Source: Marinicauda salina (GTDB taxonomy: Bacteria; Pseudomonadota; Alphaproteobacteria; Caulobacterales; Maricaulaceae). Taken from it: a DNA stretch of 64,000 nt. This document shows, in pieces, positions 36,331 through 38,623 of this stretch (position 1 is the first letter of the stretch; every line of letters begins with the position of its first letter). A program made the translations under genes and the position numbers. The notes below the pieces were generated by a model. That model searched no databases and was not told where the DNA came from. It was given only the letters and a program-made list of their open reading frames with translations. The DNA is taken from the NCBI RefSeq assembly GCF_003122085.1, contig NZ_QEXV01000001.1, positions 930,001 to 994,000 on the forward strand, read 5' to 3'.

Positions 36331-37785
36331 TCACCCCCGCCAGAAGCCCGGCGTGAGCAGGACCAGCAGCGTCATGATCTCCAGCCGGCCGATCAGCATG
36401 GCCGCGGTCATCACCCATTTCGCCGCGTCGGGCAGGGACTGGAACGTCCCCGCCGGGCCGATCGTCGCGCCCAGGCCGGGGCCGACATTGGCCAGCGTCG
36501 TGGCCGCGCCCGAAACCGCCGTGACCGGGTCGAGCCCGATCAGCGACAGCGCGGCGGCCGACGCCGCGAAGGTCGCGAAGAAGACGAAGAAGAAGCCGAG
36601 CACCGAGCGCAGCGTGGCGTCGGGCAGGATCTTGCCGCGATAGCGCACCGGGCGCACGGCGTGCGGGCGGACATACTGGACGATGTAGGCCCGCAGCGCG
36701 GCCGCCGCGATCTGGTAGCGGAAGATCTTCACCGAGCACGTCGTCGATCCGGCGCAGCCGCCGACGAACATCAGCGTGAAGAAGATCGCCGCCGCGCCGC
36801 CGCCCCACAGATTGTAGTCGGCGCTGGCGTAGCCGGTGCCGGTGAGGATCGACACGCCGTTCACCGCGGCCATCCTGAGCGCGGAGCCCGCATTGGGTTC
36901 GACCTCGTTGAAGACGAGCCAGCCCGTCAGGCTCGCCGCCGCGACGAGCGCCACGCCGAGGAAGGCGCGCGCCTGGCTGTCGGTGAACAGCATGTCGGGC
37001 CGCCCCGTCGCCGCGCGCAGATAGAGCAGGAAGGGCAGGGCGGAGAGGATCATGAAGACCAGCGCGACAAGGTCGGCGCCGCCGGCGGCGAACGCGCCGA
37101 TCGAGCCGTCATGGGTGGAGAAGCCGCCTGTCGCGACGGTCGTCATGGCGTGGGCGACCGCGTCGAAGGGCGTCATGTCGGCGGCGAGATAGGCCAGGAA
37201 GCAGGCGAAGCTGAGGACCAGGTAGGCGACGCCCACGGTCGCGGCGATCTGGCCGGCGCGCGGCAGCGCCTTCTCGGTCTTCTCCGAGCTCTCCAGCCGG
37301 AAGAGCTGCATGCCGCCGACGCCGAGCAGCGGCCAGATCGCCATCGCGGTCACGATGATGCCCACTCCGCCGATCCACTGAAGGATCGCCCGCCAGAGCA
37401 GGATCCCCGCCGGCTGGTCCTGCAGGCCCGTCATCACCGTCGCGCCCGTCGTGGTGATGCCCGAGGTCGCCTCGAAGATCGCGTCGGTCCAGCTGAGCCC
37501 GACCCCGGCGAGCTTGAGCGGCACGGCGGCGGCGAAGGCCAGCAGAACCCAGGACCCTCCGGCGATCAGGATGGCGCCGCGCGGGGTGAGATCGCGCACC
37601 GCGCCGCGACCCATCAGCGCCATCACGCCGCCCGCGAACAGGCCGAGCACGGCCGATCCGAAGAAGGCGTGCGCCGACTGGGCGTCGGTGTTGAGATCGA
37701 CGATGGCGGGCACGAGCTGCGCCGCCGACAGCGCCGCGAGCATCATGCCCAGGATGAACAGGACGGTTCGGAAGGAAGGGCTCAC
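36331..37785 (-). CDS. TrkH/KtrB family potassium transporter
   Basis: A 484-residue membrane protein with four P-loop repeats characteristic of K+ uptake subunits: TSGITTTGATV, TVATGGFSTHDGS, ILTGTGYASADY and TLANVGPGLG, each with the selectivity-filter Gly. The 'WRAILQWIGGVGIIV' segment is typical of TrkH. It needs a cytoplasmic TrkA/KtrA partner, which is not adjacent. The start is a GTG at 37785, only 12 bp from the end of a MITE at 37798, so the native promoter and leader have been displaced; the start could be different in the ancestor. Confidence 0.93.
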   Translation of the reverse strand: MSPSFRTVLFILGMMLAALSAAQLVPAIVDLNTDAQSAHAFFGSAVLGLFAGGVMALMGRGAVRDLTPRGAILIAGGSWVLLAFAAAVPLKLAGVGLSWTDAIFEATSGITTTGATVMTGLQDQPAGILLWRAILQWIGGVGIIVTAMAIWPLLGVGGMQLFRLESSEKTEKALPRAGQIAATVGVAYLVLSFACFLAYLAADMTPFDAVAHAMTTVATGGFSTHDGSIGAFAAGGADLVALVFMILSALPFLLYLRAATGRPDMLFTDSQARAFLGVALVAAASLTGWLVFNEVEPNAGSALRMAAVNGVSILTGTGYASADYNLWGGGAAAIFFTLMFVGGCAGSTTCSVKIFRYQIAAAALRAYIVQYVRPHAVRPVRYRGKILPDATLRSVLGFFFVFFATFAASAAALSLIGLDPVTAVSGAATTLANVGPGLGATIGPAGTFQSLPDAAKWVMTAAMLIGRLEIMTLLVLLTPGFWRG

Positions 37786-37797
37786 CGGCCGCGCCTA

Positions 37798-38072
37798 GGG
37801 TCCGGACACAATTCTTTTGCCGCAGTGAGCGGCGGGATTTTGGTTTGTGGCCAGGCGCGGTCCCGCAGGAAAGGCGGCCCTTTTCAAGGGACCGCAACGC
37901 CGCCACGGGCCGAAAGATCGCCGCTCGGTGCGAAACCAAGCAGCCTCAGCCGACTGAGCGGCGGCCTGTCGCGTCAAGCCGCTTGGCCGGGAATGGCCCC
38001 GGCCTGCGCGTCTTTCCTCCCATCCCTTGCTCATTCGGCTGTCACTCCGACAAAAGAATTGAGTCCGGACCC
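37798..38072. mobile_element. 275-bp miniature inverted-repeat element (MITE), TA-flanked
   Basis: The two ends are inverted repeats of 32 bp with three mismatches. The left end starts GGGTCCGGACACAATTCTTT and the right end, read inward on the minus strand, starts GGGTCCGGACTCAATTCTTT. TA dinucleotides flank it directly (37796-37797 and 38073-38074), the duplication expected for IS630/Tc1-mariner type transposases. It has no coding capacity for a transposase, so it would move only with help from a full element elsewhere. It separates apaG from trkH, which read in the same direction; the G of the apaG stop codon is the first base of the element. Confidence 0.85.
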
Positions 38073-38464
38073 TAGTGCAGCGTGAACCGGTCGTGCGGGG
38101 TGTCGAGCGAAAAGGCCGGGATGTCGGCGCAGAACTCCTCGCCGTCCTTCGACCGCATGACATAGGCGCCCGACATGAAGCCCGACGGCGTCGGCAGAGG
38201 CGCCCCGGAGGTGTAGCGATACCGGCCGCCCGGCTTGATGACGGGCTGCTCGCCCACGACGCCGTCGCCGCGCACGATCTCGGTGCGGTTCATCGCGTCG
38301 GTGATCCGCCATTCCCGCGACATCAGCTGGATCGGCTGGGCGCGCGTGTTCTCGATCTCGACGGTGTAGGACCAGACGAACCGGCTTTCGCCCGGCTCGG
38401 ACTCGTCGTCGAGATAGTCCGGCTCGACCTTGATCACGACGCCGCGCGTCTCGCTCCTGTACAT
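38072..38464 (-). CDS. apaG: ApaG domain protein (Co2+/Mg2+ efflux-linked)
   Basis: A 130-residue all-beta protein of the ApaG family: FVWSYTVEIEN, SREWRITDAMN, GDGVVGEQPVIKPGGRYRYTSG and GFMSGAYVM are conserved blocks. Function is uncertain in bacteria; loss affects cobalt and magnesium handling and nucleotide metabolism. The ATG at 38464 follows GGAG at good spacing; a longer form from 38500 lacks a ribosome binding site. The stop TAG is built from the TA target site and the first base of the MITE. Confidence 0.93.
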   Translation of the reverse strand: MYRSETRGVVIKVEPDYLDDESEPGESRFVWSYTVEIENTRAQPIQLMSREWRITDAMNRTEIVRGDGVVGEQPVIKPGGRYRYTSGAPLPTPSGFMSGAYVMRSKDGEEFCADIPAFSLDTPHDRFTLH

Positions 38465-38623
38465 GGCGCTCCGGCCTCCCTGCGAAGCCTGATCTGACAT
38501 CTAACGCGTGAATTGCTCAAGAGGCGCCGCGCGGTCGGCTGGACTTCCGGCGCCCCATGCTGGAATGGTCGATCCCTCCGGTCGGCCGATTCCGGCCGCC
38601 GTCAAACGAAAGGCCGCCGCCGC

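What the first reader, a model, noticed from the sequence alone, without database searches (positions are those of the whole stretch)
37798..38074. A MITE inserted at a TA that is part of the apaG stop codon and next to the trkH start
The 275-bp element has 32-bp terminal inverted repeats and TA flanks. The apaG stop TAG consists of the TA target plus the first base of the element, so insertion kept the reading frame closed by luck or because any TA plus G gives a stop. The other end lies 12 bp from the trkH GTG, so the element must now contain or replace the promoter and leader of a potassium transporter gene.
Basis: partly seen in the sequence, partly recalled or inferred. Interest (0 to 1): 0.6.

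Follow-up and report, generated by a model that had tools for sequence, protein, structure and literature searches.

The report
Folded mobile element at a stop codon
A 275-base non-coding jumping element has landed exactly on the stop codon of apaG, just before a potassium-transporter gene, without altering either protein; it belongs to a widespread alphaproteobacterial group of folded mobile elements whose ends vary but whose folded core is conserved, which Rfam does not list.

Summary
Window 37798-38072 (275 bp) has ~31-bp terminal inverted repeats (TIRs) and TA on both sides. The apaG stop TAG is the TA plus the element's first base, and the other end lies 12 bp from the trkH GTG. It is a real insertion: in 42 relatives apaG and trkH are adjacent with 18-228 nt between matches, against 289 here. 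It is the only copy in its genome.

The interpretation needs three corrections. (1) The matching autonomous elements are ~840-bp IS5-family (IS427-like) elements, not IS630. The own genome keeps one truncated IS5 transposase with a similar end. (2) Landing on a TAG stop is a recurrent pattern (59/135 element boundaries against 145/655 other CTAG sites, p = 5e-7): the ends begin with G, so a TA-stop is rebuilt. (3) Nothing shows that the element supplies a trkH promoter; trkH is probably the second gene of an apaG-trkH operon.

Beyond the finding, the interior is not IS-derived and not coding (pN/pS ~0.95). It is two head-to-head copies of a ~110-nt folded domain. In 43 matches 29 of 30 pairs show double changes (0/500 shuffles). 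Related elements, 160-300 bp with very different TIRs, occur across Alphaproteobacteria; Rfam has no match.

The parts
37798..38072 (.). MITE-like element, 275 bp (273 bp if the duplication is read as CTAG rather than TA)
   Evidence: TIRs; copies in other genomes; empty site
37798..37828 (+). terminal inverted repeat, trkH side (GGGTCCGGACACAATTCTTTTGCCG...)
38042..38072 (-). terminal inverted repeat, apaG side (GGGTCCGGACTCAATTCTTTTGTCG...); contains GACTC (a GANTC site)
   Evidence: sequence
37796..37797 (.). TA target duplication, trkH side (within CTAG 37795-37798)
   Evidence: sequence
38073..38074 (.). TA target duplication, apaG side (within CTAG 38072-38075), part of the apaG stop codon
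   Evidence: sequence
37943..38055 (-). folded domain, first copy (sense on the minus strand)
   Evidence: covariance model R1
37815..37928 (+). folded domain, second copy, inverted (sense on the plus strand)
   Evidence: same model hits the opposite strand, E = 1.2e-5
37795..38034 (-). 79-codon open frame inside the element, ending at the TAG 9 nt before the trkH GTG; judged not to be a gene
   Evidence: pN/pS ~0.95
38072..38500 (-). apaG; stop TAG at 38072-38074 is TA plus the element's first base
36331..37785 (-). trkH-like potassium transporter gene, GTG start 12 bp from the element

Best explanation
The feature is a non-autonomous transposable element (MITE). It was mobilised in trans by an IS5-family (IS427-like) transposase that recognises its ends and inserts at TA within CTAG. 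It landed on the TAG stop codon of apaG in an ancestral apaG-trkH operon. Because the target TA is duplicated and each end begins with G, the stop was rebuilt and both proteins stayed intact; only ~275 nt of strongly folded sequence was added between the two genes. The interior does not come from an IS and is not coding: it is two inverted copies of one ~110-nt folded domain shared by a large alphaproteobacterial group of similar elements with different terminal repeats. Shown: insertion, single copy, empty site in relatives, TIR match to IS5 elements, no protein-level selection, conserved fold and covariation. Inferred: mobilisation by that transposase, operon status, and the effect on trkH, most likely lower or uncoupled expression by read-through from apaG rather than a new promoter.
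For: Single copy and TIRs. Empty site: 42 relatives with apaG-trkH gaps of 18-228 nt, median 39, against 289 here. Copies at other sites in G167, G195, G139, G203, G206 and G213. Same ends on 840-bp elements flanked by CTAG with IS5-family transposases. Truncated IS5 transposase with end ctag|GGCCTGTACTCAATT in the own genome. Boundary TAG as the end of a long open frame in 59/135 element ends against 145/655 control CTAGs, p = 4.7e-7. Non-coding: pN/pS ~0.95, flat codon positions. Fold: 62 interior pairs, 94.4% paired, 23 with double changes, 0/500 shuffles; 43 domain matches, 29/30 pairs with double changes. Independent check: 15 of 18 class-wide model hits examined have flanking TIRs with at most 1 mismatch in 14 bp, about 0.0025 expected per locus. 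Interior shares only ~15 nt, the TIR, with the IS elements.
Against: No intact partner transposase was found in this genome, so mobilisation is inferred from end similarity. No same-genus genome was available, so the exact base-level empty site is not shown. The 43 domain rows were aligned to a covariance model, which favours its own structure, and they include both halves of some elements. Whether the fold works as RNA or DNA is unresolved.
Confidence: 0.84

Rival explanations
1. IS630/Tc1-mariner-derived MITE, as the reader proposed from the TA target.
For: TA duplication at both ends; IS630 elements are known to target TA (own knowledge).
Against: The ~840-bp element with the same ends that was scanned encodes an IS5-family transposase, and the others encode visibly similar proteins; IS427-group IS5 elements also give a 2-bp duplication and are 832-865 bp (PMC3281130).
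Confidence: 0.05
2. A resident regulatory element (attenuator or leader) of trkH rather than an insertion.
For: Strong fold directly upstream of trkH.
Against: Absent from the same junction in 42 relatives; copies sit next to unrelated genes.
Confidence: 0.03
3. The element carries a small gene: the 79-codon frame with a Shine-Dalgarno-like GGAG and ATG.
For: The frame is open in most copies and copy lengths mostly differ by multiples of 3 (275/278); SD and ATG are conserved in most copies.
Against: pN/pS ~0.95 with equal change at all codon positions; SD and ATG lie inside a conserved helix; some copies are shifted or truncated; other frames are also often open in this high-GC sequence.
Confidence: 0.04
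4. The covariation reflects quasi-palindrome correction (template switching that copies one hairpin arm onto the other) rather than selection on the fold.
For: In the pairs predicted on both strands G-U and A-C cells are about equal (11 vs 14), as expected for DNA-level homogenisation.
Against: Conserved bases lie in the internal loops (AGGA, GnAG, TCAAG, GAC) across families, which homogenisation does not explain; with columns chosen by Watson-Crick pairing only, G-U exceeds A-C 35 to 13 on the domain-sense strand.
Confidence: 0.25

Closest known systems
IS5 family, IS427 group insertion sequences (e.g. IS1248, ISPaes2 of Paracoccus; PMC3281130)
   Same: The ~840-bp elements with the window's ends have the size, the split open frames, the short TIRs and the TA/CTAG flanks of this group; NF033580 transpos_IS5_3 matches.
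   Different: The window element has no transposase and shares only the terminal ~15 bp with them.
Bacterial MITEs with conserved folded transcripts (NEMIS/Correia, ERIC; reviewed in PMC2229807)
   Same: Small, TIR-flanked, TA at the ends, strong stem-loop, intergenic.
   Different: Two head-to-head copies of one domain; the same core is found under many unrelated TIRs; 1-9 detected copies per genome.
Caulobacter CIR repeats (described in PMC2229807)
   Same: Alphaproteobacterial, structured in two arms, carry GANTC sites; some ends here contain GACTC.
   Different: CIR are ~110 bp and listed without TIRs; sequences were not compared because the source paper was not held.

Membership tests
MITE (non-autonomous TIR element) | terminal inverted repeats and target duplication | tested here: met
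MITE (non-autonomous TIR element) | no transposase of its own | tested here: met
   275 bp, non-coding
MITE (non-autonomous TIR element) | copies at other sites and an empty site in relatives | tested here: met
   other genomes yes; own genome single copy; empty site
IS5/IS427-mobilised element | same ends as an IS with an IS5-family transposase | tested here: met
   the matching IS lie in other alphaproteobacterial genomes
IS5/IS427-mobilised element | matching intact transposase in the same genome | tested here: not met
   only a truncated relative (189 aa) with a similar left end
IS5/IS427-mobilised element | transposition by that transposase | not testable with these tools
   needs a transposition assay
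IS630-derived MITE | ends shared with an IS630 transposase element | tested here: not met
   elements with these ends carry IS5-type transposases
Rfam RNA family | match above the gathering score | tested here: not met
   no element matches a family at its gathering score
Caulobacter CIR repeat | sequence similarity to CIR1-CIR4 | not tested
   CIR sequences not available

The most novel reading that the evidence does not exclude
The conserved ~110-nt folded domain is a functional RNA or DNA module that spreads by exchanging transposon ends: one structured passenger, paired head-to-head so that a sense copy is made whichever way it is transcribed, carried by several unrelated transposase systems across Alphaproteobacteria.
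Probability: 0.3. Interest if true: 0.72.

Novelty: new variant of a known kind. Interest (0 to 1): 0.48.

Why it matters
As a single insertion it is ordinary, but it shows a general route by which TA/CTAG-targeting elements settle harmlessly: they land on TAG stop codons and rebuild them, even between the genes of an operon. The larger point is that the element's interior belongs to a widely spread, strongly covarying folded family that keeps its core while its transposon ends change. MITEs are usually explained as deleted copies of an IS; here the core is shared and the ends differ, which raises the testable question of what the core does.

Tried and rejected
Small conserved gene inside the element: rejected, pN/pS ~0.95. 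Strand-specific RNA in the close family: no strand bias in the pairs predicted on both strands (11 G-U vs 14 A-C), split by domain not significant; in the wider family a G-U excess of 35 to 13, treated as suggestive only because some chosen columns are redundant and the rows come from model hits. Rfam: nothing above gathering; the weak BASRCI408 and CI27 hits in L243 lie outside the element. Plasmid and phage collections: no match. sigma-70 promoter scan: none found, weak for high-GC alphaproteobacteria. Literature searches for CTAG-targeting IS and stop codons, and for alphaproteobacterial structured MITEs, gave no direct precedent in the titles and abstracts returned from the held library.

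Full report
Observation. The window has at 37798-38072 a 275-bp stretch bounded by inverted repeats (34-nt arms at 91% when the flanking CTA/G is included) and by TA on both sides. The end motif is found only at these two points in the window. apaG (38072-38500, minus, PF04379) ends CAC TAG, with T and A from the target and G from the element. The trkH-like gene (36331-37785, minus, PF02386) starts 12 bp beyond the other end.

It is an insertion. It has no second copy in the 2.89-Mb genome. In 42 relatives of the same family or order apaG and trkH lie side by side on one strand with 18-228 nt (median 39) between the protein matches; here the gap is 289. In relatives apaG typically ends in ...H plus stop (TAG, TGA or TAA) and trkH starts soon after, for example CACTAG then GCTCTC then GTG in G068. 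Copies of the element, 70-75% identical, sit next to unrelated genes in G167, G195 and G139, and a search from G195 found further copies in G203, G206 and G213. No same-genus genome was available, so the empty site is shown at family level, not base by base.

Which transposase. The pattern TAGGGTCCGGACNCAATT occurs at more than 118 places, in alphaproteobacterial genomes as far as the titles tell. Elements bounded by it fall into ~840 bp and 115-320 bp classes. The 840-bp class is flanked by CTAG and carries split reading frames with similar proteins; the one scanned against the libraries (L132) matches DDE_Tnp_1 and NCBIfam transpos_IS5_3. The IS427 group of the IS5 family is described as 832-865 bp with mostly 2-bp duplications, some members with two overlapping frames (PMC3281130). 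IS630 is therefore not supported. The own genome holds one truncated relative (189 aa, NF033580) whose left end is ctag|GGCCTGTACTCAATT; no intact partner was found.

The stop codon. Because these ends begin with G, any in-frame TA at the target reads TAG after insertion, and a TAG or TAA stop is rebuilt. Among 135 unique element boundaries, 59 have an open frame of at least 100 codons ending at the boundary TAG, against 145 of 655 other CTAG sites in the same DNA (Fisher p = 4.7e-7). Members of the window's own group show the same, on both sides in G195a, G223 and L242. Open frames were not checked gene by gene, so the fraction of true genes is not known. The window case is one example of a common outcome; the likely reason is that insertions inside genes are lost while insertions on TAG stops are tolerated (inference).

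The interior. Nine near-full-length copies align over 281 columns. A 79-codon frame with an upstream GGAG exists, but pN/pS is ~0.95 with equal change at the three codon positions, so it is not a maintained gene. The 62 interior pairs of the consensus fold are 94.4% formed, 23 of them with changes on both sides, above all 500 shuffles and all slid controls. A covariance model of one half (113 nt) finds related domains in 23 of 398 genomes of the order, up to 9 hits in a genome, and in 15 of 385 genomes across the class. In 43 aligned matches 29 of 30 pairs show double changes (covariation 0.693 vs 0.221 shuffled), with conserved bases in the internal loops. The other half of the same element matches the same model on the opposite strand (window 37815-37928, E = 1.2e-5; likewise in further loci), and several elements show inverted similarity between halves by plain alignment (the window copy itself does not, z = 1.0). 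The element is thus two head-to-head copies of one domain.

Ends versus core. Most hits lie inside TIR-bounded elements of roughly 160-300 bp, mostly flanked by TA, but their TIRs differ greatly, for example GGGTCAGGACCTG, GGCCGTAAACTC, GGTAGTGTATTC, GGCTCTGTGGCC, GAGCCCCGGGCG and AGCCCGGATTTCTCACCA. The outer TIRs were not part of the model, and 15 of 18 class-wide hits examined have them with at most one mismatch in 14 bp, where chance gives about 0.0025 per locus. The core shares nothing beyond the TIR with the IS5 elements. A core that stays while ends change is the new point. Whether transposases of other families act on the other ends was not tested.

Function. Rfam has no match for the elements above its gathering scores. 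Whether the fold acts as RNA or DNA is open: strand tests are neutral in the close family and suggest the domain-sense strand in the wider family. Quasi-palindrome correction remains a real rival for part of the covariation. For trkH, I expect reduced or uncoupled expression by read-through from apaG; this is inference. A promoter inside the element has no support (a weak test in such genomes).

Verdict. Observation confirmed; MITE supported; IS630 and the promoter claim not supported; the stop-codon position explained as a recurrent outcome; the structured core family is the most interesting result, rated a new variant of a known kind.

Noticed in passing
G000:C1:816739-817353 (L195:1116-1758): Truncated IS5-family transposase (189 aa) with intact left end ctag|GGCCTGTACTCAATT, lacking its 3' part; a possible relic of the mobilising element.
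   Followed up: partly
window 38057-38072 and the ends of the 840-bp IS5 elements (L029, L034, L063 etc.): Many of these ends contain GACTC or GAATC, i.e. a GANTC site (CcrM methylation site), which could tie transposition to replication; other TIRs of the group lack it.
   Followed up: no
L203, L204, L205 (G208, G212, G127): A related sequence with other inverted ends (GTCTGGTCTTCCGGAATTTT) lies at the same place in three genomes, so some copies are old and shared.
   Followed up: no
L071:3230-3491, L040:5126-5285, L025:41-306: Other MITEs with the window's TIRs have interiors that look like distant versions of the same folded domain; L040 (160 bp) seems to hold a single domain.
   Followed up: no
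L082:4791-5042: By contrast this MITE with the same TIRs is a plain internal deletion of an ~840-bp IS5 element (86% identical to L034 over 158 bp).
   Followed up: partly
L263, L264, L269, L277, L278 (class-wide hits): Copies of the folded domain carry TIRs of the form TAGCCCGGATTTCTCACCA, probably served by a different transposase.
   Followed up: no
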